Source: Haladaptatus sp. DJG-WS-42 (GTDB taxonomy: Archaea > Halobacteriota > Halobacteria > Halobacteriales > Halococcaceae). From it: a stretch of 64,000 bases of DNA. Positions 16,284-61,672 of this stretch are shown one piece after another (within the stretch, counting starts at the first letter, position 1; every line of letters starts with the position of its first letter). The position numbers and the translations under genes were made by a program. The notes under the pieces are model-generated. The model was not told where the DNA came from, searched no databases, and worked only from the letters and a program-made list of their open reading frames with translations. Location: NCBI RefSeq assembly GCF_037198285.1, contig NZ_CP147243.1, positions 1,728,422 through 1,792,421 of the forward strand, given 5' to 3'.

Positions 16284-16539
16284 TGGACGTGCCGGGACTG
16301 AGTGGAAACGAAGTTTCCACGAAGGTCGAAGCGGCGTTGCCACTTCGAGATTTGAACCCGGAGTGAGACGGTCACTCACTTCGTTCGGGTGCTGCGACTT
16401 CCGGCAGAACGAGTTCTGCCGTCGTCTCGTTCGCGTCGCTCACGAGACTCACAGGGCTTCAAATCCAGGCTTCGCCGTACAATGATTACGCGACACAGCG
16501 ACTCGCTTCGCTCGCCGTGTTGTGTCGCGAAAGTAATAG
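16284..16539 (-). repeat. Decayed tRNA-Ala tail with inserted palindromes
   Basis: This stretch on the 3' side of tRNA-Ala holds a broken copy of the tRNA 3' end. TGGACGTGCCGGGA (16284-16297) matches the acceptor/T-stem end. After an insert of about 50 bases, GATTTGAACCCGG (16349-16361) completes the T-arm. Perfect palindromes lie inside and after it: GTGGAAAC-GAA-GTTTCCAC (16302-16320), GGCAGAAC-GA-GTTCTGCC (16403-16420), and a longer one around 16493-16529. No open reading frame of protein character is seen. Confidence 0.6.
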
Positions 16540-16611
16540 TGGACTTGCCGGGATTTGAACCCGGGGCCTCTTCCTTGCGAAGGAAGCGATCTGCCGCTGA
16601 TCTACAAGCCC
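16540..16611 (-). tRNA. tRNA-Ala (CGC)
   Basis: Seventy-two bases on the minus strand. The acceptor GGGCTTG pairs with CAAGTCC (one G-U). The anticodon stem CTTCC/GGAAG encloses the loop TTCGCAA with anticodon CGC. The T-arm is CCGGG-TTCAAAT-CCCGG, and the discriminator is A. CCA is not encoded. No intron is needed. Confidence 0.93.
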
Positions 16612-33070: not shown

Positions 33071-33297
33071 TATTCCACCACAAGGCGGTATACGACCGCC
33101 GTCTCAGTTGTTCGGGAGTTTCGCACGATTTTGATGACGTCACCCACTTCCGCCTCGTCCGGGAGTGCGGGGTCGGTGCGTTTGATTTTTGGAAGGTCGG
33201 TGCGTTTGATGTCGTATTCTTCCAGAACCTCCTCGACTGACTCGTCGTCAAGCACGAGATGGTCCGGGACAAGTTTGTGTTGGCTTACGTCTACCAT
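33070..33297 (-). CDS. rpoH: DNA-directed RNA polymerase subunit H
   Basis: A 75-residue subunit homologous to the C terminus of eukaryotic Rpb5, with the signature [12 protein letters not shown]. It is the first gene of the RNA-polymerase operon. The 209 bp upstream, up to tRNA-Asp, would contain the operon promoter. Confidence 0.95.
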
Positions 33298-33460: not shown

Positions 33461-33473
33461 GAAAAGCCTTAAG
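33461..33473 (+). promoter_or_regulatory. Candidate tRNA-Asp promoter (first copy)
   Basis: GAAAAGCCTTAAG is an A-rich BRE-like stretch followed by the TATA-like CTTAAG, ending 33 bases before the mature tRNA. A matching AAGCCTTAAG lies at 34014-34023 before the second copy, again 33 bases ahead. Confidence 0.4.
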
Positions 33474-33506
33474 CCTAACACCCCGTTACGATTAGTTGCG
33501 TCACCC

Positions 33507-33579
33507 GCCCGGGTGGTGTAGTGGCCTATCATACAACCCTGTCACGGTTGTGACCCGGGTTCAAATCCCGGCTCGGGCG
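33507..33579 (+). tRNA. tRNA-Asp (GTC), first copy
   Basis: Seventy-three bases. The acceptor GCCCGGG pairs with CTCGGGC (one G-U). The anticodon loop CTGTCAC carries anticodon GTC. The T-arm GTTCAAATC is intact. The discriminator is G, the aspartate identity base. A T-run follows. Confidence 0.95.
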
Positions 33580-33586
33580 TTTTCTA

Positions 33587-33641
33587 CAGAACCCAACCGT
33601 CGAGCAGCGCGGCTTGTCGCGCTGCAACCAGCTGGGTTCTG
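33587..33641 (+). repeat. Long imperfect hairpin after tRNA-Asp (first copy)
   Basis: The outer stem CAGAACCCA/TGGGTTCTG encloses an inner stem CAGCGCG/CGCGCTG. It begins eight bases after the tRNA and is repeated at 34137-34191 without a visible change. It could be a processing signal, terminator or transposable remnant. Confidence 0.55.
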
Positions 33642-34056
33642 GTGTAACGACCACTGAGGGATTTGAAGCAGGGAGCGAGAGGTGAGCGAAGGGAACGGGA
33701 GCGACCGTGGTTCAAACTCCGATGCGGCGAAGCCGCATCGTGGCTCGCAAATCCGAAGGATTTGCTCACTCCCGGCTCGGGCGCTTTTTCCAAGGAACTA
33801 CCCGACGAGCACTGCGGAGCGTGTGCTCGTACTCTCGTGAGTAGTAAACCGACCACAGAGGGATTTGAACGTTCGAGCGAACGGCGTGAGCGAGAGAAGT
33901 TCAAATCCAGATACTGTTCTGGTACGGCTCGGGCGCTATTTCCAAACTTCAACTACCGAGCAGCGCGTCGTGTGTGTTCAACACCTCCCGACTGACCATC
34001 ATCCCAAGCTAGTAAGCCTTAAGACCCACACCCCGTTACGGGTAATTGCGTCACCC
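33642..34056 (+). repeat. Decayed tRNA-Asp tails with palindromes, first block
   Basis: Two broken copies of the tRNA 3' end are recognisable by GGCTCGGGCG followed by a T-rich stretch, at 33774-33783 and 33926-33935. In the first, the T-loop TTCAAA is separated from TCCCGGCTCGGGCG by two perfect palindromes, GATGCGGC-GAA-GCCGCATC (33721-33739) and GCAAATCC-GAA-GGATTTGC (33747-33765). In the second, TTCAAATCC is followed by a 17-base insert. No gene is seen. Confidence 0.6.
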
Positions 34057-34129
34057 GCCCGGGTGGTGTAGTGGCCTATCATACAACCCTGTCACGGTTG
34101 TGACCCGGGTTCAAATCCCGGCTCGGGCG
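34057..34129 (+). tRNA. tRNA-Asp (GTC), second copy
   Basis: Identical over its mature length to the copy exactly 550 bases upstream, with the same anticodon GTC and discriminator G. The upstream ten bases, the T-run and the following hairpin are also duplicated, which points to a recent unit duplication. Confidence 0.95.
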
Positions 34130-34136
34130 TTTTCTA

Positions 34137-34191
34137 CAGAACCCAACCGTCGAGCAGCGCGGCTTGTCGCGCTGCAACCAGCTGGGTTCTG
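34137..34191 (+). repeat. Long imperfect hairpin after tRNA-Asp (second copy)
   Basis: The same structure as the one at 33587-33641: outer stem CAGAACCCA/TGGGTTCTG and inner stem CAGCGCG/CGCGCTG. Confidence 0.55.
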
Positions 34192-34441
34192 GTGAAACGA
34201 CAACAAGGGATTTGAAACAGGGAGCGGGAGGTGAGCGAAGCGAACGCCTTCAGACCGCATTGCGATCTGACGAGCCACGAAACTCGCAGCGTTATTTTCG
34301 GACGGGAGCGACTGTGGTTCAAACTCCGATGCGGCTTTTGCCGCATCGTGGTTCGCGAATCCCCCGGATTCGCGCACTCCCGGCGAACGAGTTTGCCGAC
34401 CTTCGTGGAAACTTCGTTTCCACTCAGTCCCGGCTCGGGCG
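34192..34441 (+). repeat. Decayed tRNA-Asp tail with palindromes, second block
   Basis: A third broken 3' end finishes at GGCTCGGGCG (34432-34441). Its T-loop TTCAAA (near 34320) is split from TCCCGGCTCGGGCG by a run of palindromes: GATGCGGC-TTTT-GCCGCATC (34328-34347), CGCGAATCC-CCC-GGATTCGCG (34354-34374), an imperfect one at 34381-34398, and GTGGAAAC-TTC-GTTTCCAC (34405-34423). Confidence 0.6.
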
Positions 34442-51659: not shown

Positions 51660-51927
51660 GTGAGTTCGAGCGTCGTTTCACCGCGACGTACTCAACATGG
51701 GGAGAGAGACGGGGCTTCGTTTCACTCGGCACCGCTCGCTCCCTGCTTCAAATCGCGCTCCGATAGAATGTTCACGGTCGACAGCTCACTCGCTGCGCTC
51801 GTTCGTGTTGTCGGCCGTAGAAACTGCCGCCTCCCGGATTGTGAACCGATGAAAGATTCGTTCCACTCGTCTTTCAGGATACAAATCGCTCGTGAGCATT
51901 TTCACTGCTCACGTTGTTCGCAGGAAA
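51660..51927 (-). repeat. Decayed tRNA-Phe tail
   Basis: This region is the original 3' flank of tRNA-Phe, displaced by the integrated element. It contains a degenerate copy of the tRNA end at 51825-51847, TGCCGCCTCCCGGATT with one inserted G before TGAACC. Palindromic debris and TTCAAATCGC-type fragments lie around it. No gene is seen from 51536 to 51927. Confidence 0.55.
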
Positions 51928-51954
51928 ATGCCGCCTCCCGGATTTGAACCGGGG
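51928..51954. repeat. Left attachment site (attL)
   Basis: Starts ATGCCGCCTCCCGGATTTGA and continues for seven more bases, identical to 61598-61624. It covers the acceptor end, T-stem and T-loop of tRNA-Phe. The tRNA is not continued beyond the core, so this copy is non-functional. Confidence 0.85.
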
Positions 51955-52025
51955 GACGAAAACCCTCAGTCAACCGCCGTCCGGGACTCAGCTAACTCAC
52001 AATTGGTGTTCTGCGGAGAGCAACA

Positions 52026-53039
52026 ATGTCCGAACTCGAACCACTCGCTCCCGCAGAAGCAAAGGAAATGTTCACCGCTCAACGGAGTGGTGAAGTATCA
52101 GAGAAGACCCTACAGGGCTACCATTACCGACTCAAGCCGTTTGTCCAATGGTGTGCTCAAGAGGGGATCTCGAATCTAAATAACTTGACTGCTCGATCAC
52201 TCCACAAATACCGTTTGTGGAGAAAAGAAGACGGGGATCTGAAGACGATTACGTTGAAAGGTCAACTCTCTACGCTCCGCGTTTTCGTGAAGTTCTGTGA
52301 GGCTGTTGATGGAGTCGAACAAGGCTTGCACGACAAGATACTAATACCGACGGTTGAAGACGAGGAAGCCGTCAGTAGTAGTATACTCGAAGCTGAGCAG
52401 GCCGAGAAAATGCTTGAGTATCTCAGAAAATTCGAATACGCATCGAAAAGACACGCACTATTCACTGTCCTTTGGCACACCGGCTGTCGAATGGGTGCTG
52501 CACATGCCATTGATATAGGGGACTTCAATCCCGAAAATCAATCTCTATCAATCCGCCATCGTCCCAAGACAGGGACCACTCTGAAGAATAAGCAGAGTGG
52601 AGAACGAATTTGCGCTCTTTCGGAAGAGGTGTGTGAGACACTCCAGGATTACATCTGTGTCAACCGAGATGCCGTCAAGGATGATCACGGGAGAGAGCCG
52701 TTATTCACGACTCGCTATGGTCGAATGCACCGTTCGAAAATTCGAGAGATGGTGTATGCCGCGACTCGTCCTTGTGCCTATGACGAGAAGTGTCCGCATG
52801 ATCGCAACCCCAACTCCTGCGAGGCGGCCACCTATACGAAGGCAAGCAAGTGCCCTTCGAGTGTGTCCCCTCACGATATTCGGAGAGGATCGATCACGCA
52901 TCTCTTGAGGAACGACGTTCCAAAACAGGTCGTTTCAGATCGAGTGAATTCATCCCCTGAAACGCTCGAAAAACACTACTCACAACTCACCGAGGAAGAG
53001 AAAATGGAACAGCGAAGAGATTATCTCGATAGTTTGTAG
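52026..53039 (+). CDS. int: Tyrosine recombinase / integrase
   Basis: A 337-residue XerC/phage-type integrase. N-terminal SAM-like core-binding domain at about 20-95. Catalytic R155 (HTGCRMGAAH), H283 and R286 (SPHDIRRGSI), and tyrosine 318 (LEKHYS). A cysteine cluster, C250, C256, C265 and C276, precedes the H-x-x-R box and probably binds zinc; this insert is common in haloarchaeal integrases. The gene is next to attL, as expected for the element's own integrase. Confidence 0.92.
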   Translation: MSELEPLAPAEAKEMFTAQRSGEVSEKTLQGYHYRLKPFVQWCAQEGISNLNNLTARSLHKYRLWRKEDGDLKTITLKGQLSTLRVFVKFCEAVDGVEQGLHDKILIPTVEDEEAVSSSILEAEQAEKMLEYLRKFEYASKRHALFTVLWHTGCRMGAAHAIDIGDFNPENQSLSIRHRPKTGTTLKNKQSGERICALSEEVCETLQDYICVNRDAVKDDHGREPLFTTRYGRMHRSKIREMVYAATRPCAYDEKCPHDRNPNSCEAATYTKASKCPSSVSPHDIRRGSITHLLRNDVPKQVVSDRVNSSPETLEKHYSQLTEEEKMEQRRDYLDSL

Positions 53040-53183
53040 GTGATTTCGCACAGTTAGAATTGGCGAGTAATCACACTGACGCGGCCTGTTTTTCGGAAGT
53101 CTGTCTTCCGACGAGGAGGTGGTTCATGGGGTCGTTTTGAATATCTGCCAATGGTATGATGCGAAGTCACATCGTCACATCTG

Positions 53184-54761
53184 TCACGCTTGTTTCTGTA
53201 GCATTATCCCTGTGAACACTCGTGGTTTCTCACCGTCAACTCGTCTTTGGCTTTCGCCAACCGTGTTACGACGCTTCAACTGAGAGGTGAATTCCCGCTT
53301 TGAAACAGGTTCCAAATTCTCTGAGTCTGTATACTGCTTGTAGGCGGTATATGCGTCTGATTTTGTAACGAACGCTCCACTATCACGCTCAAGACAATTC
53401 TGGTAAAACTGCTCAACAGAACTTCCGTATCTGTCCCATATATTTCGACTTTCCGCTGGCGTGGGCTCGTTTGAGAACTTACCCTGTTCTTCCAAGCGTT
53501 GAAAGCCTTGAATGGCCCAATTGAGTACTCCTGACAAACTTTCAGACGTAGTAAGCCGCTTAGTCAATTGTGGGTCCTGTTCAGATCTTGGTATGCTGTT
53601 CGGGAAGACGATGGTCAACCATCTGTTCCAAAACCCATCATCGTCTGCCTGATGCTTTGGAGCACGATTTGCCGAAAATATGTGCTTGGTGCGAGGTCTG
53701 AATGAGAAGGGTTTCTCGTGTTTTCTTTCCGCAGTCATTCCATTACCTGCAACCAGCTTTTTGAACTTCCCTCCGTTCCTAATATCGTTAGTACTGAGGT
53801 CGTCGCTGACGTTTACGGGAGTCCCAATTAATTCGGCTTCTCCCCATCTCTCGTTTGCGAGGTATTGTACCGATAGATTGGTTGTGTTCTCAAACCCGAA
53901 CAAGGACTGGATCACATCGAGGAGAACACTCTTTCCTGCGTCTGTCGGACCAAAGATGACCATTGCTTTCTTCTGATCCATTTTGGGCTGTAGAGAATAG
54001 CCCACGAACTCCTGCAGCATCGGGACCTTTTCAGCAGGACAAACTTGACCAAGGAAATTCTGAAATTCGTCACAGTCTGCATCCCCATCGTATTCAACTG
54101 GAAGATGCCATCTGAAATGGTGCTCTGGGCTGTGGTGTTCGAGGGTTCCAGTTGTGAGGTCAACAACTCCGTTCTCTACACAGATTTTGGTATCTGGCTG
54201 TCGGAAGTCGTCCCTGTCTACGTAGGTTTGTGCTTTGATTCGATCAATGAGATGGTTTACTTCAGTTTTTGAGTAAAATTCCTGGAGTACCTTATCTAAG
54301 TGCTCTTTGAGTAATTGCTTAGTCTGGTCTTCGAAAACGCCCTTTTCATCTCTGTACCAGTACAGCTTCTCTGCCTCCCGCATCGTAGCAAATGTAAACT
54401 CTGATTGAAGCTGTTCAACAGCCGCAAGACGGGCTTTTTTCTTCCTACCACGCTCATCATACATCTCCCGAATGTGACGCCACTGTGCTTGCGGTGTTTC
54501 CTTTTGAACAGTCCATACGTCCTTGTTTCGAATGAAATGCAGAAATGATTCAACATATTTGTCTTCCAGTTCTTGGTCAATAGCTGTGAGAACTGAGAAG
54601 TCAAGCGACTCTTCTGCCATCTTCACCATTTCGTCGGCAGTGTGATCACCTGTCTCTCGTACGTAGATGGTGTGTTCATCGGGTGCAACCCAATCCTCGG
54701 GCGAATTCGTAATCGAATTCACAAGAATTTCTTGCTGCTCATTTAGCTCGACACTATTCAT
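53184..54761 (-). CDS. P4-type phage/plasmid primase-helicase
   Basis: A 525-residue protein. The D5_N-like region lies at about 120-230 (CVENGVVDLTTG at 194-205). The superfamily-3 helicase P-loop FGPTDAGKS is at residues 270-278, followed by NVSDDLS as the B motif. The C-terminal winged helix is visible from about 430. Such proteins start replication of satellites and plasmids. The usual N-terminal primase-polymerase domain is absent, so it may be helicase-only or use a host primase. GGAGGGGTGAAC precedes the ATG as a strong ribosome-binding site. Confidence 0.87.
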   Translation of the reverse strand: MNSVELNEQQEILVNSITNSPEDWVAPDEHTIYVRETGDHTADEMVKMAEESLDFSVLTAIDQELEDKYVESFLHFIRNKDVWTVQKETPQAQWRHIREMYDERGRKKKARLAAVEQLQSEFTFATMREAEKLYWYRDEKGVFEDQTKQLLKEHLDKVLQEFYSKTEVNHLIDRIKAQTYVDRDDFRQPDTKICVENGVVDLTTGTLEHHSPEHHFRWHLPVEYDGDADCDEFQNFLGQVCPAEKVPMLQEFVGYSLQPKMDQKKAMVIFGPTDAGKSVLLDVIQSLFGFENTTNLSVQYLANERWGEAELIGTPVNVSDDLSTNDIRNGGKFKKLVAGNGMTAERKHEKPFSFRPRTKHIFSANRAPKHQADDDGFWNRWLTIVFPNSIPRSEQDPQLTKRLTTSESLSGVLNWAIQGFQRLEEQGKFSNEPTPAESRNIWDRYGSSVEQFYQNCLERDSGAFVTKSDAYTAYKQYTDSENLEPVSKREFTSQLKRRNTVGESQRRVDGEKPRVFTGIMLQKQA

Positions 54762-54840
54762 TGTTCACCCCTCCTTCATTGCAAAAGGGGGTTTGCGGGT
54801 TGTACAGCTGTAGCTCATCAGTCGGATTGTTTGGACTCAT
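54754..54840 (-). CDS. Possible 28-residue peptide overlapping the primase start
   Basis: A short frame (MSPNNPTDELQL, ending GGVNNE) stops inside the start of the primase gene, so their ends overlap by eight bases. The overlap suggests a coupled leader, but the Gly-Gly-Val part is simply the translated ribosome-binding site. Confidence 0.25.
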   Translation of the reverse strand: MSPNNPTDELQLYNPQTPFCNEGGVNNE

Positions 54841-55100
54841 GGTTGTGATCGTCCGTGACGGGGCGAGTATTCGGTCACGATGCACCGATTTCCGTCAACC
54901 GTCCCGAACGCATCTATGTCGAGGAGCAGATCTTTCTTAAGTCATTTTGCCTCATATGGGGCAAGCAGACGACGCGATTTTTTCGTCTTGAAGAGGGTTC
55001 GAATCTCCGCGTTAGGAGGATTGCTACCCAAAAAACTACTAGTCACGGAGTATTGATTGTCCAAAAACAATATGTTGTCACGCTGTGAGATGCTGGACGA
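54841..55100. promoter_or_regulatory. Divergent control region between primase and hamA
   Basis: A gap of 260 bases between divergently transcribed genes. It holds AT-rich stretches (AAAACAATATGTTG near 55065) suitable for the hamA promoter. No frame with protein character was accepted here. Confidence 0.4.
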
Positions 55101-56075
55101 ATGACTTCCTCGGGAGCAGATTGGTCGGACTCTACGATCATCAAATCCAGCGAACTTGACAATTTCTTCTATGAATCTATGGATGATGAGGACGAGAATG
55201 TGATTATCCATGGGTATTCGATCAAAGTTTTAGAATCTGGGTTCAATTACTCGGGATTGGAAGAATATCTTGGAGACAAATTCGCCGACTACGTATTCCC
55301 ATCTAAGAAAAAACAAGAGTTGCTTGATAAAGGGAAATCTCCTGCAGTTAGGGCTCAGCAGAAAGCGGGCTTCAATAAGGACTACCAAAGAGATGGGAAC
55401 CTTGGTGAATTCCTTCTTTTCTTGCTGGTCGATGGCTATTTTGACATTCCGATGATCTCCCACAAGATCATCTACAAGCAAAACTACCAACACGAGGTAT
55501 ATGGCTCAGACAACCTCTTCTTTGGTGAATTCAAAGATCGTGAACACATTGGAGTTGGCGAGGCAAAGATCTATGGCGGAATAACCGATGGTGTAAGGGC
55601 TGCTGTTGAGAGTATAGGTGACTTCCACAACGAGAATTCTCGAAGGTATATGGAGCAGGAATTAAGTCTTGCCCCTAAGAATATCAGCCGGAATTTAAAC
55701 GAGCAACAGATCGATTATCTTGCGGATGTAATGGTTGATGGAGGTTATTCTGATTTCCCCATATTCCATCCTGTGTTCATCTGTTACGGTCAGGAGGATT
55801 TGAAAGATGTGGAGGATGTGACCAAATCCATCGACGAAATTGAAGATGAAATATCTGAGATTCTGAAGGATGAAGATTATATTTCAAAAATCGACAATCA
55901 GGTTGAGCAAGGTCATCATAGAATTAATCGAGCTCACCTACTCTTTCTCATATTACCCGTCGCGGATTTGGATGAATTCAGGAAGCGCATGTTGACTTCG
56001 ATTGTTCCGGGTATTGGGCCCGCCATCTCCCCTGAAGATGATTCAGACGACTCCAAGACCGAGGTTGAATCATGA
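55101..56075 (+). CDS. hamA: Hachiman defence nuclease HamA (DUF1837)
   Basis: A 324-residue protein. The middle matches DUF1837: RDGNLGEFLLFLLVDGYFDI at 97-116, GSDNLFFGEF at 135-144 and GVGEAKIYGGITDG at 151-164. Candidate metal/catalytic residues in PD-(D/E)xK order are E103, D137, E154 and K156. In characterised Hachiman systems HamA is held inactive by HamB and cuts DNA once the helicase senses damaged or invading DNA, stopping phage. Its stop overlaps the hamB start (ATGA). The AT-rich codons mark it as foreign. The family call rests on motif memory, not on an alignment. Confidence 0.87.
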   Translation: MTSSGADWSDSTIIKSSELDNFFYESMDDEDENVIIHGYSIKVLESGFNYSGLEEYLGDKFADYVFPSKKKQELLDKGKSPAVRAQQKAGFNKDYQRDGNLGEFLLFLLVDGYFDIPMISHKIIYKQNYQHEVYGSDNLFFGEFKDREHIGVGEAKIYGGITDGVRAAVESIGDFHNENSRRYMEQELSLAPKNISRNLNEQQIDYLADVMVDGGYSDFPIFHPVFICYGQEDLKDVEDVTKSIDEIEDEISEILKDEDYISKIDNQVEQGHHRINRAHLLFLILPVADLDEFRKRMLTSIVPGIGPAISPEDDSDDSKTEVES

Positions 56076-58588
56076 CTACGTTTTCTTCGGCCGCTAGAAT
56101 GGAAGTGTTTGTAAAATCAATTGACGAACTAACGAAGTCGGTGTTCTTCGAAGATATTGGACAGGAATACGAAATTCAGGTTTCGGATAAAGATCTGAAA
56201 AAGTCTGCTTGGATTAGCTCACTGTTAGCAGATAGTGATGATGACCAACATCGAAAGAAGGCACTCTCGTTTGCTGTTTTACTATACGTGTCCAAACGAG
56301 AAGGAGAGCAAGAGCCGCTCTATCGCAGGTATCTATATACAATTCTTTCTCGCCTTGGAAATATCCCGACTGCTAACGCCCTTGCAGACCAATTTGAGGG
56401 CGATGTGATTGAGATTACAGAAGCGGGATCGCTGTTAGACGCAGAAATCAATTTCACAGAAGAGTTCTATCGGTTTGATGACGAGATAATCTTCACTGAG
56501 TTTCAAAAAAGGGTTTGGGCAAACTTGGATGAAGATTACTTCGTTTTCTCTGGACCTACTTCGTCGGGGAAGTCGTTCCTTCTACAGACGTATATTAATT
56601 ATAAAATTGAAGAAAATTCGGAATTCCAGGGAATATATTTAGTGCCATCAAGGGCCTTGATCTCGGAGGTCAGTTCAGACTTCAAGCAGAAGTTGTCCGA
56701 CGATGTTGAAGTACGGACTGGAGCATATCTTGATGAACTGGGCGACAGCTACCTCTTGGTGTTAACACCAGAACGGTGCCTACAGTTGTTTGATTACGAA
56801 GATGATGAAGAAGTCGATTTTGACTTGATTTTCCTTGACGAAATTCAGGAATTAGAGAGTAAGAGCAGAGGGCCACTTTTTGAGGATGTAATGGGGAACC
56901 TGGAAGAGATCTGGGACTCTGCTCAGATATTAGCGGCAGGGCCTAACATTAGTAACCCCACTGAAATCTTAGAAGAAGTCGTAAAGGGAGATGCAAGTGA
57001 CATTCAATCGATGTTTAATCCTGCTGTCCACATTGAAGCCAACTTTACCTTCCATAAGCGTGATAACAAAATATACCTCACCCTTGAAAGTCCGTCTGGT
57101 ACCACATTAGAGGAAAAAATCACCAGACCAACTGGACTGAGTTACTCCACAATTGGTGGGCCGAAAAAAGAGGCTGTGAGGAAGTTTGATGAGGAGTATG
57201 GCGGAAGCGGACAAACCTTAGTATATTCTCCCTTGACGCGGACCGCAGAATCTTTGGCAGAAGGGTTGGCGGAATCACGAAATAAACAGGAGATCTCTGG
57301 CAGGTGTGAGAGTCTAATTGACTACCTTGAAAGGACAATTCACGAAGAGTACACCCTAGCGCAAACTCTGAAGCAAGGTGTTGCATTTCACCACAGTGGT
57401 GTTCCCCAAGTTGCTAGAGAGGAAATAGAGGCGTTGTTCAAGAAAGAAAAGATCGACGCAATTGCATCTACTTCTACGCTACTTCAAGGGGTCAATTTAC
57501 CTGCGGAAAAGATGTACATATTGGATCCATCAAAGGGTAATAATCATGTCTTGTCCGACCATGAGTTTGAGAATTTATTAGGAAGAGTTGGTAGAGTTGG
57601 GGAGAAAATGTATGGGACCATATATTATATTGACAGAGAAGATGATGAGTGGGCAACTGACAGGATTGGAAAATCAACAAATAAAGAAGTGAAGTCGGCT
57701 ACAAGAAAGGCAATCTCTGAAAACCGCTCAGAGTTGATAGAGAAGGTTGATGATGAGGATATTAATCGAATTGAAGACAAAGGAGTGCGGTATACTATTA
57801 CACTTCTCAGGAACAAGTATTTGAAAGATAGTAAGGATATGGGCTCATATCTAGAGAAAAAGGGTGTTTCTCCGGAGGAGGTTTCTGAAATAGAAGCGCG
57901 TCTCGCCCCAGTCTTAGATGATTTGGCGATTCCACCAGAAATTCTAAAGAAAAACCCGACAGTTGACCCCGTTCTACAGAATCAATTATATACTAATGTA
58001 GTTGACAATCAAGACATTTGGGAGATTCACCCTTCAAACATGCGTAGTGACTTTTTCAGGGTGACTCGGATGTTGAATACAATTTTCAAATTCGCTGAAG
58101 ATCCGGAAGGAGGGGTCGAGGATGTTGGCCCCTCTGATTTACACTCTCACAAGCTGATTCTCAGTCTATACCAAGGATACCACTGGATAACCGCTAAGGA
58201 TTACAAACAGATGATCTCGCTACGACGTGATGCACTGAATGAGAAATATGTCTCCACCTCAATTAAGAACGTCATGAAAACCATCCGAAAAGATGTTCAA
58301 TATCTGTTTGTCAAATATTATAAAATACTATGCGACATTTTCCGTCAAATGGAGGGGTACGACAATTCATTTATGTTGAACTTTGATAAACGGTTGGAGA
58401 GAGGATCTGCAAATCCCGCGCATCTGAAGATGATGGATATGGGAATCGATCGTTCAATAGCAATCGAGTATACTCCTCCCGAAGATGAGGACCCTGAAGA
58501 ATATTTGCAGTCGATGTTTCCGTCGATGGATCCCTTGTATCAGAGGCATTTACAGAATGCAGGATTGAACACGGGAGACGCAGAATAG
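56072..58588 (+). CDS. hamB: Hachiman defence helicase HamB (SF2)
   Basis: An 838-residue Ski2-like SF2 helicase. Q-like FTEFQKRVW precedes Walker A SGPTSSGKS (residues 160-168). The DExH box is DEIQ (256-259). Motif V STSTLLQGVNLP starts near 467 and motif VI GRVGR is near 504. The C-terminal 300 residues are helical with no named domain. HamB translocates on DNA and controls HamA. The four-base overlap with hamA fixes the partnership. Confidence 0.88.
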   Translation: MTTFSSAARMEVFVKSIDELTKSVFFEDIGQEYEIQVSDKDLKKSAWISSLLADSDDDQHRKKALSFAVLLYVSKREGEQEPLYRRYLYTILSRLGNIPTANALADQFEGDVIEITEAGSLLDAEINFTEEFYRFDDEIIFTEFQKRVWANLDEDYFVFSGPTSSGKSFLLQTYINYKIEENSEFQGIYLVPSRALISEVSSDFKQKLSDDVEVRTGAYLDELGDSYLLVLTPERCLQLFDYEDDEEVDFDLIFLDEIQELESKSRGPLFEDVMGNLEEIWDSAQILAAGPNISNPTEILEEVVKGDASDIQSMFNPAVHIEANFTFHKRDNKIYLTLESPSGTTLEEKITRPTGLSYSTIGGPKKEAVRKFDEEYGGSGQTLVYSPLTRTAESLAEGLAESRNKQEISGRCESLIDYLERTIHEEYTLAQTLKQGVAFHHSGVPQVAREEIEALFKKEKIDAIASTSTLLQGVNLPAEKMYILDPSKGNNHVLSDHEFENLLGRVGRVGEKMYGTIYYIDREDDEWATDRIGKSTNKEVKSATRKAISENRSELIEKVDDEDINRIEDKGVRYTITLLRNKYLKDSKDMGSYLEKKGVSPEEVSEIEARLAPVLDDLAIPPEILKKNPTVDPVLQNQLYTNVVDNQDIWEIHPSNMRSDFFRVTRMLNTIFKFAEDPEGGVEDVGPSDLHSHKLILSLYQGYHWITAKDYKQMISLRRDALNEKYVSTSIKNVMKTIRKDVQYLFVKYYKILCDIFRQMEGYDNSFMLNFDKRLERGSANPAHLKMMDMGIDRSIAIEYTPPEDEDPEEYLQSMFPSMDPLYQRHLQNAGLNTGDAE

Positions 58589-58744
58589 TTTTGATTCAGG
58601 AAATTTGGCGTGCCACAGTTGTCACACCCTCTGGTATACCTTTGTTTGTCAATACGGTTGTTTGTCGATTATCGTAATCACTTGATGATATTCTTGTGAC
58701 AACCGTGACGTGCTATTTGGGACTGATTTCGTCAAATATGCCTT

Positions 58745-58981
58745 GTGAGTGGACGCTATCATCCTTTTCACCCGCATTCCGGTGCAGTAGCTCCGGATTC
58801 GGAAACCGCAGTAATCACACTGGAACCTCCACTACTCCAGCAGATGCGTGTATACGGAAACCACTTGCCCGGTGTGATTAATCGATATACAGTCCTTGGG
58901 TGGAAAATTTTGGAAACCCAATCAACTGTGATTGTTGAGCAGCAGGTTTTTCAGGTTGGTGATCGCTTTGGTAATAAATGA
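58745..58981 (+). CDS. Possible 78-residue protein coupled to the HEPN gene
   Basis: A GTG-started frame whose TGA stop lies inside the next gene's ATG (ATGA). It reads ETAVITLEPPLLQQMRVYGN in the middle and YTVLGWKILETQSTVIVEQQ later, a beta-like pattern of plausible protein character. No family is recognised. The GTG start is weak, and an internal ATG at QQMRVYGN would leave 45 residues. The 389 bases between hamB and the HEPN gene are otherwise empty. Confidence 0.35.
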   Translation: MSGRYHPFHPHSGAVAPDSETAVITLEPPLLQQMRVYGNHLPGVINRYTVLGWKILETQSTVIVEQQVFQVGDRFGNK

Positions 58982-59964
58982 CAGAGCTTGTATTCCCCTT
59001 ATATAACGTACATATGCCTGAGGCAGAGTATACAAACGACCAATATGAAATTCGAATTGAACTTCTCGAAGGGGCGGAGGAATTTGAGAACCAGCGTCGA
59101 GAAAATGGTAGTGAATATGCCCACGGGTATTGGCATACAGCCAACGCCTATATTGACCAGCCTATCGAAGAAGCGAAGAATATCATCGATGTTCTTTCTC
59201 AGATTCTGTCGTTTGCTCTAAACCGTGACGTACGGTTTAACGGATATTATGAAGGAGATGATCCAGATGCTCCATTTTTGACGATGAGCATTTGCAAATT
59301 CGACATAGACAATACGAATCTCAAACTGATACACGGAGTGCCAGGAGGTCAATCGAACCCCGGTGTCAGAATCGGTCCGTTTCTGGACACAGCTCTCGAC
59401 ACTGTTTTATCTGCAAATGAAGGGGCGAAGAAGCAGAAAATGAGGACGATTAGTCAATTCCTGGAAGCAACTGCTGTGAATTTTGCATCAACCAAATTTA
59501 TTATTTTATGGATGGCTCTTGAATCCAGTGCGAATCAAAATTATACAGAGTATCGAGAAGCGATGGGTGACCTATTCACAGATGACGAAATAGAATGGGT
59601 TATCGGCACGGTATTGCGTAGTCTCGAATCCGGACTCAGCGATAAACAATTGGACGTTCTGGAGTATCGGTTTAACAAGAGATACTTGTATGAACATAGT
59701 GCTGCTGTCAAAATCAAAATATATCTTGAATACCTCGACATTGGATTTGACATGGATGAGATTGAGGAGATCATCCAACATTCCCGAGAGATTAGGAATG
59801 TTGTTGTGCATGAAAGTGATGGCAGTCCAATTATCGATAATACAGAGCGCTTGGTTGAACTAAGGAAGATTGTAATTTTTGTAATACTTCGAAAGCTTGG
59901 AATTGGCAAGGAATTCCAAGAACGTCTGATTACTCCTCAAATAATGGGGCCAGATATTTCGTAG
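58978..59964 (+). CDS. HEPN-like protein with R-x4-H motif, putative toxin/effector
   Basis: A 328-residue protein of unknown family. Residues 1-150 look beta-rich. Residues 155-328 are helical and contain FIILWMALESS (about 174-184) and EIRNVVVHES (271-280). R273 and H278 match the R-x4-6-H ribonuclease motif of HEPN domains, and the layout resembles ApeA-type abortive-infection proteins. It follows hamAB in the same direction. RNA cleavage is inference; the motif and fold pattern are what is seen. Confidence 0.65.
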   Translation: MTELVFPLYNVHMPEAEYTNDQYEIRIELLEGAEEFENQRRENGSEYAHGYWHTANAYIDQPIEEAKNIIDVLSQILSFALNRDVRFNGYYEGDDPDAPFLTMSICKFDIDNTNLKLIHGVPGGQSNPGVRIGPFLDTALDTVLSANEGAKKQKMRTISQFLEATAVNFASTKFIILWMALESSANQNYTEYREAMGDLFTDDEIEWVIGTVLRSLESGLSDKQLDVLEYRFNKRYLYEHSAAVKIKIYLEYLDIGFDMDEIEEIIQHSREIRNVVVHESDGSPIIDNTERLVELRKIVIFVILRKLGIGKEFQERLITPQIMGPDIS

Positions 59965-60051
59965 GGGTAGTCGGCCTGCTAATGGACTTTTCATTGGTCA
60001 CAGATTTAGTATATCAAATTGCTCAAGTAGAGGTGGGAAGACTACTGGAAC

Positions 60052-60690
60052 ATGTCCGATGTAAGTCCTCGACAACTTCGACATTTTAGATCGCTCTTCG
60101 CCGCATTCTTCATAATAGCAACTGTGTTTGTTTTGGTTTATTGTGTTTTCCCTAGCTCATTCCTTAATTCCGCTGTTCCTACAGCGTTTACCCTCTCAAT
60201 TTCAACCGTCTCAATCATTATCGCAATATACTCATTCACGTCACCAAGCAAGTGGTACCCAGAAGACGTACGCCATATTGTTCACACTTCTGACCCATCT
60301 GACTGGGAGTTTAGCGAAACAGACGAAGGTGAAAAATTAGTCTACAAAAATGACCGCTCTATCAGTATTGAGACAGCTCAGGTGAGTGGATTTATGGACT
60401 ATCACGAACCCTGGATGGATGTTTTTGAGAAAACAGAGGGAACACGATATAAAGCTAAAATCTTGAAGGATCGTCACGAATACGACTACTGTTATTTGGT
60501 GTGGGTTGACGGAAAGATCCTGGTCCCAGAGCCAAACAAGTGGGGTGGAGAGACTATATCACATATGGGGGACCGTGTAGCTCGTTTAATAGAGATGGCC
60601 CGCGCTCAGGGAATACGGCCGTCTATGGACGAGCAGAAAGAGATATACGAGCAAACAATCGATTTTGTGGGCTTCGAAGTCGAAGACTAA
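60052..60690 (+). CDS. Two-transmembrane protein with cytoplasmic-type domain
   Basis: A 212-residue protein. Two membrane helices (about 14-35 and 42-62) lie at the N terminus. A soluble domain of 145 residues follows (SIETAQVSGFMDYHEPWMDV, then HEYDYCYLVWVDGKIL). The layout, a small TM hairpin plus a sensor-like domain, is common among membrane effectors of defence systems, but no family is recognised. It begins 87 bp after the HEPN gene on the same strand and is the last gene of the cargo run. Confidence 0.6.
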   Translation: MSDVSPRQLRHFRSLFAAFFIIATVFVLVYCVFPSSFLNSAVPTAFTLSISTVSIIIAIYSFTSPSKWYPEDVRHIVHTSDPSDWEFSETDEGEKLVYKNDRSISIETAQVSGFMDYHEPWMDVFEKTEGTRYKAKILKDRHEYDYCYLVWVDGKILVPEPNKWGGETISHMGDRVARLIEMARAQGIRPSMDEQKEIYEQTIDFVGFEVED

Positions 60691-60741
60691 GCATTCTTGT
60701 TCGAAACTGCTAGCGGATCGGGGGCCTTTGAACGATCTGTC

Positions 60742-60879
60742 TTAGATGATGAGAAAGGCAGTCACATCTGCGATTCGTTGGAGGATACTTGGATCGACCA
60801 AACCTCCGTTCCAAAAGAAGAAATCAAATAGGAAGTACAGTGCCAGCAGGCTCCCAATAAGTCTCCCAATTGCTTCCAT
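60742..60879 (-). CDS. 45-residue membrane peptide
   Basis: A short gene, MEAIGRLIGSLLALYFLF followed by DFFFWNGG and an amphipathic end VDPSILQRIADV. One hydrophobic helix covers residues 5-22. It starts eight bases after the stop of the zinc-ribbon gene, so the two probably form an operon. Such peptides can be toxins or phage-control factors; nothing more is visible. Confidence 0.5.
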   Translation of the reverse strand: MEAIGRLIGSLLALYFLFDFFFWNGGLVDPSILQRIADVTAFLII

Positions 60880-60887
60880 AGCTTATC

Positions 60888-61172
60888 TCAAAACATCGAA
60901 TCGAAGCCGTTCCCTCGCTGTTGGTCACTATCCTTCTCGTAGAATCTCCCACCACATTTTGTACAAACAATTACCGTAGTACCGTCTCCCATTTGCCCGC
61001 CGAACCCGCCGAAGGTAGCACCAGTTGAACGCTGAACTGTTTGAGACTCCTTGTACTCGGGGTCACAGTCGCACAGGTCGTTATCGTCTTGTACCTCTTC
61101 AAACTCCGAAGGGGCAGTCTCAAGCGGATCTTCGATGGTGTTGTTTTCCCAAGGTCCATCGTTATCGAACAT
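60888..61172 (-). CDS. Small zinc-ribbon protein
   Basis: A 94-residue acidic protein. CDCDPEYK near residue 33 and CTKCGGRFYEK near residue 70 supply the cysteines of a zinc ribbon, separated by a Gly-rich loop (GATFGGFGGQMGDGTT). No family is recognised. It is the first gene of a minus-strand pair at the tRNA end of the element. Confidence 0.55.
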   Translation of the reverse strand: MFDNDGPWENNTIEDPLETAPSEFEEVQDDNDLCDCDPEYKESQTVQRSTGATFGGFGGQMGDGTTVIVCTKCGGRFYEKDSDQQRGNGFDSMF

Positions 61173-61206
61173 TGTACGGTTCTGAGTACGTGATTTAAAT
61201 ACAAAA

Positions 61207-61416
61207 GTGTTCTTTGTTAAACAATGCCAAACGCTGGATCTCTACCTCAGTATGGTACATTTCTCCGGATCAGTTGCGCAATCTCTCAGACACCTTCGAA
61301 AATTCCTATTAAAAAAAGAAGCGATCATCAGACCTCCTTCAAATCGGATTTACAGAGTACGGGCAGGCGCGTGTGATTACTGGATCTTATTCGAGTCAGT
61401 CCGGAATCCGACTTGA
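61207..61416 (+). pseudogene. Possible RelE/ParE-type toxin remnant
   Basis: A 69-residue frame whose end (IYRVRAGACDYWILFES) resembles the YRLRVGDYR-V-Y core of RelE/ParE toxins. It has no antitoxin neighbour, breaks off early and carries an insertion-like GAC in the core, so it looks decayed. The remaining sequence up to 61597 shows no gene. Confidence 0.25.
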
Positions 61417-61597
61417 TGATTCCGTGCGTGTTTCGCACAAACACCGGCGAAAGAACTAGGTTCCCTCGTCACGTCTGCGCTATTGCAGAACATCATACGT
61501 GAACGGGTGCGTCCAGTCACTGGTTGAACTCCTAAGTGATTAATCAAAAACGCACGAAGGCGAAGGGGTAGTCGAATACCCTTCAACCAGTAAGGGG

Positions 61598-61624
61598 ATG
61601 CCGCCTCCCGGATTTGAACCGGGG
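61598..61624. repeat. Right attachment site (attR) within tRNA-Phe
   Basis: Identical over 27 bases to 51928-51954. It covers the 3' end of the functional tRNA-Phe, so integration left the tRNA intact. Sequence diverges at the next base, G in attL and A here. Confidence 0.85.
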
Positions 61625-61672
61625 ACAGCCCGATCTTCAGTCGAGTGCTCTCCCAGGCTGAGCTAAGGCGGC
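61599..61672 (-). tRNA. tRNA-Phe (GAA)
   Basis: Seventy-four bases on the minus strand. The acceptor GCCGCCT pairs with AGGCGGC. The anticodon loop CTGAAGA carries GAA. The T-arm CCCGG-TTCAAAT-CCGGG is intact, and the discriminator is A. It is the insertion target of the neighbouring element. Confidence 0.95.

What the first reader, a model, noticed from the sequence alone, without database searches (positions are those of the whole stretch)
33461..34191. Duplicated tRNA-Asp unit including promoter and a 55-nt hairpin
The two tRNA-Asp copies lie exactly 550 bases apart. The match covers part of the promoter, the tRNA and a downstream hairpin with two nested stems, while the sequence between has diverged. 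Conservation of the hairpin with the tRNA suggests it is functional, perhaps for 3' processing, or that gene conversion spans it.
Basis: partly seen in the sequence, partly recalled or inferred. Interest (0 to 1): 0.5.

Follow-up and report, generated by a model that had tools for sequence, protein, structure and literature searches.

The report
tRNA tail-copy cassettes in haloarchaea
Just downstream of most transfer-RNA genes in salt-loving archaea sit short, non-coding, hairpin-forming DNA units, each ending in a copy of that gene's own last 20 bases, which are gained and lost as whole units exactly at the gene's end; the duplicated tRNA-Asp spot is one example of this widespread and apparently undescribed feature.

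Summary
The repeat is real: tRNA-Asp(GTC) at 33507-33579 and 34057-34129, 550 bases apart, inside a 191-nt, 96% repeat with a 55-nt hairpin. But the spacer has not simply diverged. It holds two partial copies ("echoes") of the tRNA-Asp 3' end, and a third follows copy 2, each with an inverted T-arm half and palindromes. This is general: 32 of 44 tRNA genes of this genome carry an echo of their own tRNA downstream (control upstream 2 of 44), 19-25 of 40 in three other haloarchaea, 1 of 22 and 4 of 23 in two non-halophilic members of the phylum. Echoes match from T54 to the mature end (73) and no further. Between three congeners, 29 of 35 end-anchored shifted alignments are offset by exactly one echo end: unit-sized gains and losses at 73|74. 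In the same genome integrase-bearing elements at tRNA-Lys and tRNA-Phe lie in series with such units and share that core. Best reading: non-coding palindromic cassettes that enter and leave at the tRNA T-loop/3'-end attachment core; the enzyme is unknown and plain recombination remains a strong rival. The hairpin is homogenised between the Asp copies while promoters are not; I find no sign of a 3'-processing role.

The parts
33507..33579 (+). tRNA-Asp(GTC) copy 1; its T54-73 core TTCAAATCCCGGCTCGGGCG is 33560-33579
33580..33783 (+). Unit 1 (204 nt): hairpin HP1, inverted T-half R, hairpin HP2, T-loop, two small hairpins, echo. Absent from this place in G001 and G002, where the trailer now at 33784 follows tRNA 1 directly: a gain in this lineage by parsimony
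33587..33641 (+).
   Evidence: MFE -31.1 kcal/mol, z -3.7
33658..33667 (+). R: GGGATTTGAA, reverse complement of the tRNA T-loop and T-stem 3' strand
33711..33783 (+). Echo 1: TTCAAACTCC (33711-33720), two inserted palindromes, then TCCCGGCTCGGGCG (33770-33783)
33784..33935 (+). Unit 2 (older): trailer hairpin, R at 33860-33869, HP2, TTCAAATCC at 33900-33908, small hairpin, echo 2 GGCTCGGGCG at 33926-33935. Trailer, R and HP2 match the unit that follows tRNA-Asp 1 directly in G002
34057..34129 (+). tRNA-Asp(GTC) copy 2; core 34110-34129
34130..34441 (+). Unit 3 behind copy 2: HP1 (hairpin 34137-34191, identical to that of copy 1), R 34207-34216, HP2 with an insertion, TTCAAACTCC 34318-34327, small palindromes, echo 3 TCCCGGCTCGGGCG 34428-34441
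16284..16538 (-). Same architecture behind tRNA-Ala(CGC) at 16539-16611: HP1, R 16458-16466, palindromes, echo TCCCGGCACGTCCA 16284-16297
51730..51948 (-). Displaced unit array of tRNA-Phe (gene at 61599-61672, minus): exact T54-73 core 51929-51948, HP1, degenerate R, second echo 51825-51845, further trailer and R
52026..53039 (+). Tyrosine-recombinase-family integrase (337 aa) of the element of about 9.65 kb inserted between tRNA-Phe and its unit array

Best explanation
The locus is a tRNA 3'-end cassette array, a haloarchaea-wide feature. Behind a tRNA gene stand one or more non-coding units of roughly 60-200 nt, each made of a trailer hairpin (HP1), an inverted copy of the tRNA T-half (R), an imperfect palindrome (HP2) and an echo of the same tRNA from T54 to base 73. 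SHOWN: the anatomy, the tRNA-specificity of echo and R, the sharp limits of the echo (G53|T54 and 73|74), the restriction to haloarchaea at the sensitivity used, unit-sized gain and loss exactly at 73|74 between congeners, and that integrase-bearing elements in the same genome sit at the same tRNA ends, in series with units, one of them (tRNA-Lys) with the same core limits. INFERRED: units are gained and lost by recombination at this core, which acts like a tyrosine-recombinase attachment site (7-nt T-loop as overlap, T-stem as arms; the entering end restores the tRNA, the displaced end becomes the echo), so units are non-autonomous attachment-site cassettes that stack behind the tRNA. At tRNA-Asp a unit closely related to that of copy 2 was inserted behind copy 1 in this lineage, which made the hairpin-bearing twin.
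For: Own-tRNA echoes: 32 of 44 tRNA genes in G000, 19 of 40 in G001, 25 of 40 in G038; upstream controls 2 of 44, 1 of 41, 1 of 40; G002 23 of 40 and non-halophilic controls 1 of 22 and 4 of 23. Same phylum: 39 of 294 genomes with the pattern, all 39 among the 53 of the same order or nearer, 0 of 241 others, reversed control pattern 0. Limits: 85-93% identity at 64-73, 52% at 74 and falling to about 30%, control level at 51 and below. R tracks variant T-loops: own 8-mer in 12 of 38 variant loci, canonical in 2 of 38. Unit indels: 29 of 35 HSPs, 20 of 26 locus pairs, match an echo end within 2 nt; clean filled/empty pair in one genus (L303/L312). tRNA-Lys(CTT): exact core 3.7 kb downstream with an integrase between, identity limited to G53-73, then two units; tRNA-Phe likewise over 9.65 kb. 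No RNA-strand bias.
Against: No recombinase acting on units is identified; integron integrase is absent at its cut-off (0 of 41 genomes). Loss by recombination between 20-nt direct repeats needs no special enzyme; repeat-mediated deletion is described in haloarchaea (PMC3119063, section 15 read). Modules HP1, HP2 and the small palindromes are shuffled separately between tRNAs, which a cassette entering as one piece does not explain alone. R tracks the local tRNA, which needs either a copying process or selection. Differences are found at tRNA-proximal and at distal echoes, so a strict order of insertion is not shown. The tRNA-Phe and G038 tRNA-Glu elements have identity blocks that start further 5' (about 48, and the anticodon region), so integrases here use several core limits; 1 of the 3 integrase-linked loci inspected has exactly the units' 5' limit.
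Confidence: 0.42

Rival explanations
1. Homologous recombination, slippage and gene conversion only. Echo and tRNA 3' ends are short direct repeats; repeat-mediated deletion removes units, and template switching or ectopic conversion (leave the tRNA, copy another locus's unit, return at the echo) adds them. No dedicated enzyme is needed.
For: HP1 identical in both Asp copies and promoters not; the new unit of Asp 1 is 94% and 86% identical in two blocks to that of Asp 2; modules shared between different tRNAs; repeat-mediated deletion in Haloquadratum, with 22- and 43-bp partial tRNA duplications among the repeats (PMC3119063).
Against: Does not predict a constant 5' limit at G53|T54 nor unrelated trailers after tRNA and echo (only 7 of 83 near-perfect echoes share 10 or more of 12 trailer bases with the tRNA's trailer); does not explain why the feature is confined to haloarchaea.
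Confidence: 0.3
2. Functional RNA element: the trailer (HP1, R:F hairpin, second acceptor strand) folds with the pre-tRNA and tunes 3' cleavage, termination or quality control; selection keeps echo and R matched to the tRNA.
For: Echo ends exactly at the mature 3' end; R and echo are tRNA-specific; HP1 folds well as RNA; several tRNAs whose downstream region is 95-99% identical between congeners (Ala(TGC), Leu(CAG), Ser(GCT)) have no unit.
Against: No G-U excess over A-C in either hairpin; hairpin types replaced freely at one tRNA; presence differs at 20 of 41 orthologous tRNA pairs between congeners; the T-run directly behind many tRNAs may stop transcription (inferred).
Confidence: 0.15
3. 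Scars: each echo is the old attachment site left by an integrated virus or plasmid that later decayed to almost nothing.
For: Integrase elements at tRNA-Lys and tRNA-Phe share the site with units; partial tRNA copies from prophage integration are reported (PMC3119063, passages).
Against: Units keep a recurrent anatomy and length (R usually 30-80 nt behind the tRNA, HP2 with conserved motif NCAGGGAG...CGACCGTGG), unlike random decay; 58 of 108 echoes are perfect and 26 have one mismatch.
Confidence: 0.1

Closest known systems
Tyrosine-integrase attachment sites in tRNA genes (T-loop sub-location), archaeal SSV/pNOB8/SNJ2-type elements
   Same: Identity block from a tRNA loop to the tRNA 3' end, tRNA restored, displaced 3' end left as direct repeat (PMC8371274 passages; PMC3293823 passages); same core limits at tRNA-Lys here.
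   Different: Units are 60-200 nt, non-coding and palindromic, in arrays, at most tRNA genes of the genome, with an extra inverted T-half.
E. coli tyrT distal repeats (rtT RNA) (recalled, not read here)
   Same: Tandem repeats behind a tRNA gene that contain the tRNA's last about 19 nt.
   Different: One bacterial locus; here genome-wide and class-wide, with R and palindromes; no RtT match among the Rfam gathering hits in the window.
Haloquadratum PATEs and small mobile repeats (PMC3119063, passages)
   Same: Non-coding haloarchaeal palindromic elements, palindromes inserted in palindromes.
   Different: PATEs are related to IS605 ends and are not described in the passages read as tied to tRNA genes or as carrying tRNA-specific sequence.
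Integron attC cassette arrays (definition recalled)
   Same: Imperfect palindrome with inverted boxes, G|TT as the likely junction, cassettes in series behind a fixed first site.
   Different: No integron integrase at cut-off, box reads GTTCAAA not GTTRRRY, no genes in units.
Casposon / Cas1-type insertion at tRNA 3' ends (recalled; one title and abstract seen)
   Same: Insertion at a tRNA 3' end with a duplicated end.
   Different: No Cas1 or terminal inverted repeats linked here; not tested further.

Membership tests
Tyrosine-integrase att sites in tRNA genes | Direct repeat runs from a tRNA loop to the tRNA 3' end | tested here: met
   Echo identity T54-73 only
Tyrosine-integrase att sites in tRNA genes | Filled and empty sites differ by one unit, tRNA intact | tested here: met
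   (29 of 35 HSPs)
Tyrosine-integrase att sites in tRNA genes | Element carries an integrase gene | tested here: not met
   Units of about 60-200 nt have no room for one; met only by the tRNA-Phe and tRNA-Lys elements. Units are therefore not filed as integrative elements, only as working like their att sites
Tyrosine-integrase att sites in tRNA genes | Recombination at the site shown biochemically or genetically | not testable with these tools
   Needs experiment
Integron attC/cassette arrays | Integron integrase (IntI) in the genome | tested here: not met
   TIGR02249: 0 of 41 genomes over cut-off
Integron attC/cassette arrays | R-box GTTRRRY / RYYYAAC (recalled) | tested here: not met
   Junction reads GTTCAAAT, fourth base C
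Integron attC/cassette arrays | Imperfect palindrome with inverted outer boxes and fixed mismatches | tested here: met
   R/F arms plus mismatch at inner position 4 in 96 of 108; the arms themselves were selected by the search pattern
E. coli tyrT rtT repeats | RtT RNA family match | tested here: not met
   Rfam gathering scan of the window: 4 tRNA hits only
PATE / IS605-derived elements | Palindromes similar to IS605-type ends | not tested
   No IS605 end library used
   Trailers of the two Asp genes 85% (G001) and 67% (G002) alike, other types elsewhere

The most novel reading that the evidence does not exclude
Haloarchaeal tRNA T-arms serve as the fixed entry site of an integron-like system: a host recombinase works on the folded R-HP2-F hairpin (junction G53|T54) and adds, removes and exchanges non-coding cassettes behind most free-standing tRNA genes, a previously unseen genome-wide cassette platform.
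Probability: 0.12. Interest if true: 0.92.

Novelty: new variant of a known kind. Interest (0 to 1): 0.7.

Why it matters
tRNA genes are the classic landing sites of mobile DNA, yet here about half or more of the tRNA genes in the four haloarchaeal genomes examined carry small, rapidly turning-over units built from their own 3' ends. It offers a natural record of site-specific or homologous recombination at tRNA genes, a candidate host recombination system to look for, and a warning for annotation: partial tRNA copies near tRNAs in haloarchaea need not mark a prophage. It also makes testable how tRNA-specific repeats are kept matched to their gene.

Tried and rejected
RNA-level selection on the hairpins: tested by wobble asymmetry, no bias. 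Reverse transcription from mature tRNA: no CCA behind echoes (commonest triplets TTT, CTT, CTC), so not supported. Carriage by viruses: 15 stretches of the 2.9 million viral contigs match a looser pattern and none of the 15 shows a tRNA followed by a unit; some hits are matches inside a tRNA gene, others a hairpin of another repeat. Integron membership: rejected (box sequence). A strict rule that newest units lie next to the tRNA: looked for, mixed result, so not claimed. Similarity of R (GGGATTTGAAGC) to haloarchaeal CRISPR repeat ends (recalled) was considered a chance likeness; not tested. The loose echo rule used (2 mismatches in 11 nt) gives some chance hits (for example tRNA-Ser(GCT) at 268 in conserved downstream sequence), so counts there rest on the offset agreement, not on the echo alone. 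Dropped rows: L298 from the tRNA-Ser count (it is tRNA-Asp), tRNA-Asp because of its twin genes, one of 108 loci (L246) for lying too close to the stretch end, and L073 (contig end). A three-way MAFFT alignment held G002 in the wrong orientation and was not used for G002; one search replaces it.

Literature: nine listings searched; passages of PMC3119063 with its section 15 whole, passages of PMC8371274 and PMC3293823. None of these listings or passages describes the arrays; the library lacks most subscription papers, so 'undescribed' means not found there.

Full report
1. What was reported and what is there. The window holds two tRNA-Asp(GTC) genes 550 bases apart in a 191-nt repeat at 96% identity, with a 55-nt two-stem hairpin behind each (33587-33641, 34137-34191). 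It is not merely that: it carries the 3' end of tRNA-Asp again at 33774-33783 and 33926-33935, and once more behind copy 2 at 34432-34441, each time with an inverted T-arm half (AGGGATTTGAA at 33657, 33859, 34206) and palindromes.

2. A general feature of the genome. I took the 44 tRNA genes (ARAGORN) with their downstream DNA (and the window). A local alignment of the last 32 nt of each tRNA against 400 nt downstream beats the best of 60 shuffles at 32 of 44 genes (forward copy at 32, inverted copy at 13); upstream, 2 of 44 do (a rerun with other shuffles gave 31 of 44). The same test gives 19 of 40 in G001 and 25 of 40 in G038, a different family, 23 of 40 in G002, and 1 of 22 and 4 of 23 in two members of the same phylum outside the order. 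By a strict rule (at most 1 mismatch at positions 63-73) the counts are 23 of 44, 12 of 40, 17 of 40, 20 of 40 (G000, G001, G002, G038) against 0 of 22 and 1 of 23, the one being a neighbouring tRNA-Met gene by the coordinates.

3. Spread among organisms. Of all 120, 108 lie within 400 nt behind a same-strand tRNA and none within 300 nt before one. The ten bases after the fixed part match the own tRNA 8.80 of 10, against 4.06 of 10 for other tRNAs; 9 or more match in 83 of 108 own and 34 of 10,660 other comparisons. In 294 genomes of the phylum a near-identical pattern occurs in 39, all among the 53 of the same order or nearer, and in none of 241 others; the reversed control pattern occurs in none. 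Since T-loops can differ, the pattern undercounts units.

4. Anatomy. In order: tRNA, trailer hairpin HP1, R, imperfect palindrome HP2, echo F, often a further unit. In 107-108 pattern-selected loci F matches the own tRNA at 85-93% per position from 64 to 73, 52% at 74, then 45% or less; upstream it is at or near control level from 51 down; positions 52-63 were fixed by the pattern. In a set not selected by that pattern (76 F sites of G000, G001, G038, found by the own T-loop 8-mer) the own-tRNA signal also runs from the T-loop to 73 and stops; G53 is near universal. R is the reverse complement of T54 to about 65: own 0.80, 0.67, 0.50, 0.43 at 62-65 against 0.56, 0.38, 0.21, 0.30 for other tRNAs, with no clear excess at 66-68. 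R follows odd T-loops: 12 of 38 variant loci hold the reverse complement of their own 8-mer, 2 of 38 the common one; of 86 common-loop loci 38 hold the common one and none the TTCGAATC version. HP2 has recurrent flanks (NCAGGGAG...CGACCGTGG) with fixed mismatches. Mismatch types show no RNA-strand bias. In G000 further palindromes interrupt some echoes between T-loop and T-stem.

5. Dynamics. In one genus (52 genomes, all matching a query from a named Halorubrum) I inspected 30 loci, 29 of them tRNA-Ser(GGA): 26 have a clear echo, one only R, two (L312, L315) neither; HP1 and HP2 come in a few types in varied combinations. L312 and L303 share flank and differ by one unit bounded by the 22-nt tRNA end. 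Between G000 and G001, 41 orthologous pairs: echo in both 9, in one 20, in none 12. Over three congeners (median flank identity 85.2, 76.3, 79.2, so G002 is taken as outgroup) 35 HSPs start within 25 nt of position 74 in one species and are shifted by at least 40 nt in the other; in 29 the shift equals an echo end within 2 nt (20 of 26 locus pairs; several of the 35 come from the twin Asp genes, where the other gene's own end counts as an echo). Outgroup reading: gains at tRNA-Gly(GCC) and tRNA-Asp 1 in G000 and tRNA-Tyr in G001, a loss at tRNA-Leu(CAA) in G001. The Gly(GCC) case is less clean, because its first trailer also resembles those of G001 and G002. New units share HP2 blocks with units of other tRNAs, for example 94.7% over 57 nt between Asp and Gly(GCC) in G000. 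One search shows both proximal and distal differences.

6. The Asp locus explained. In G001 and G002 tRNA-Asp 1 is followed directly by the trailer that in G000 starts at 33784 behind echo 1. By parsimony G000 therefore gained the 204-nt unit 33580-33783, whose HP1 equals that of copy 2 (60 of 60). Promoters are orthologous between G000 and G001 and differ between copies, so the shared tract begins in the tRNA.

7. Link to integrases. Two G000 tRNAs that first looked unit-free are in fact followed by an integrase-bearing element and then by units. tRNA-Phe (61599-61672, minus) has an exact T54-73 copy at 51929-51948, a second echo at 51825-51845 and R beyond; between lies an element of about 9.65 kb with a tyrosine-recombinase ORF at 52026-53039. 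tRNA-Lys(CTT) has an exact copy 3.7 kb away, an integrase match between, and two units behind it; there the identity runs from G53 to 73, as in units. At tRNA-Phe the identity reaches back to about 48, and at tRNA-Glu(CTC) of G038 the block is longer still and starts near the anticodon. Integron integrase: none of 41 genomes over cut-off.

8. Judgement. The feature and its exact-unit turnover are well supported. That it runs by site-specific recombination at a tRNA attachment core is my preferred reading (0.42), with enzyme-free recombination close behind (0.30), an RNA role at 0.15 and decayed elements at 0.10.

Noticed in passing
window 51929-61598: An integrated element of about 9.65 kb sits between tRNA-Phe and its unit array, with a tyrosine-recombinase ORF (52026-53039, plus strand) next to the far copy of the tRNA end and a 525-aa ORF (53184-54761, minus strand) that by eye resembles a plasmid/phage primase-helicase (not tested).
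   Followed up: partly
L396 (G000:C1:111979-111998) and L397 (tRNA-Lys(CTT)): A 3.7-kb integrase-bearing element at tRNA-Lys(CTT) lies in series with two small units.
   Followed up: partly
window 33721-33769 and 34328-34427: Short palindromes are inserted inside echoes between T-loop and T-stem; one (CCTTCGTGGAAACTTCGTTTCCACTCAG) also occurs in the tRNA-Ala echo at about 16298-16325, so palindromes nest and spread between tRNAs.
   Followed up: partly
G000:C1:1189684-1190166 and G001:C1:1452308-1452790: Long reading frames (663 and 657 aa) with a Phage_integrase match occur in both congeners, possible host recombinases.
   Followed up: no
window 33171-33186 and 33195-33210: Exact 16-nt repeat (spacing 24) inside the RNA polymerase Rpb5-like gene (33073-33297, minus strand) next to the locus.
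   Followed up: no
L177 273-320 and L154 6284-6327: The only two titled non-haloarchaeal hits of the genome scan (a Nitrosocosmicus MAG and a bacterial MAG); neither has a same-strand tRNA within 400 nt before it.
   Followed up: no
L275, L276, L279, L280, L283, L285: Viral-contig hits show another repeat, a hairpin with ATGGATTTGAACC arms, unrelated in layout to the units.
   Followed up: no
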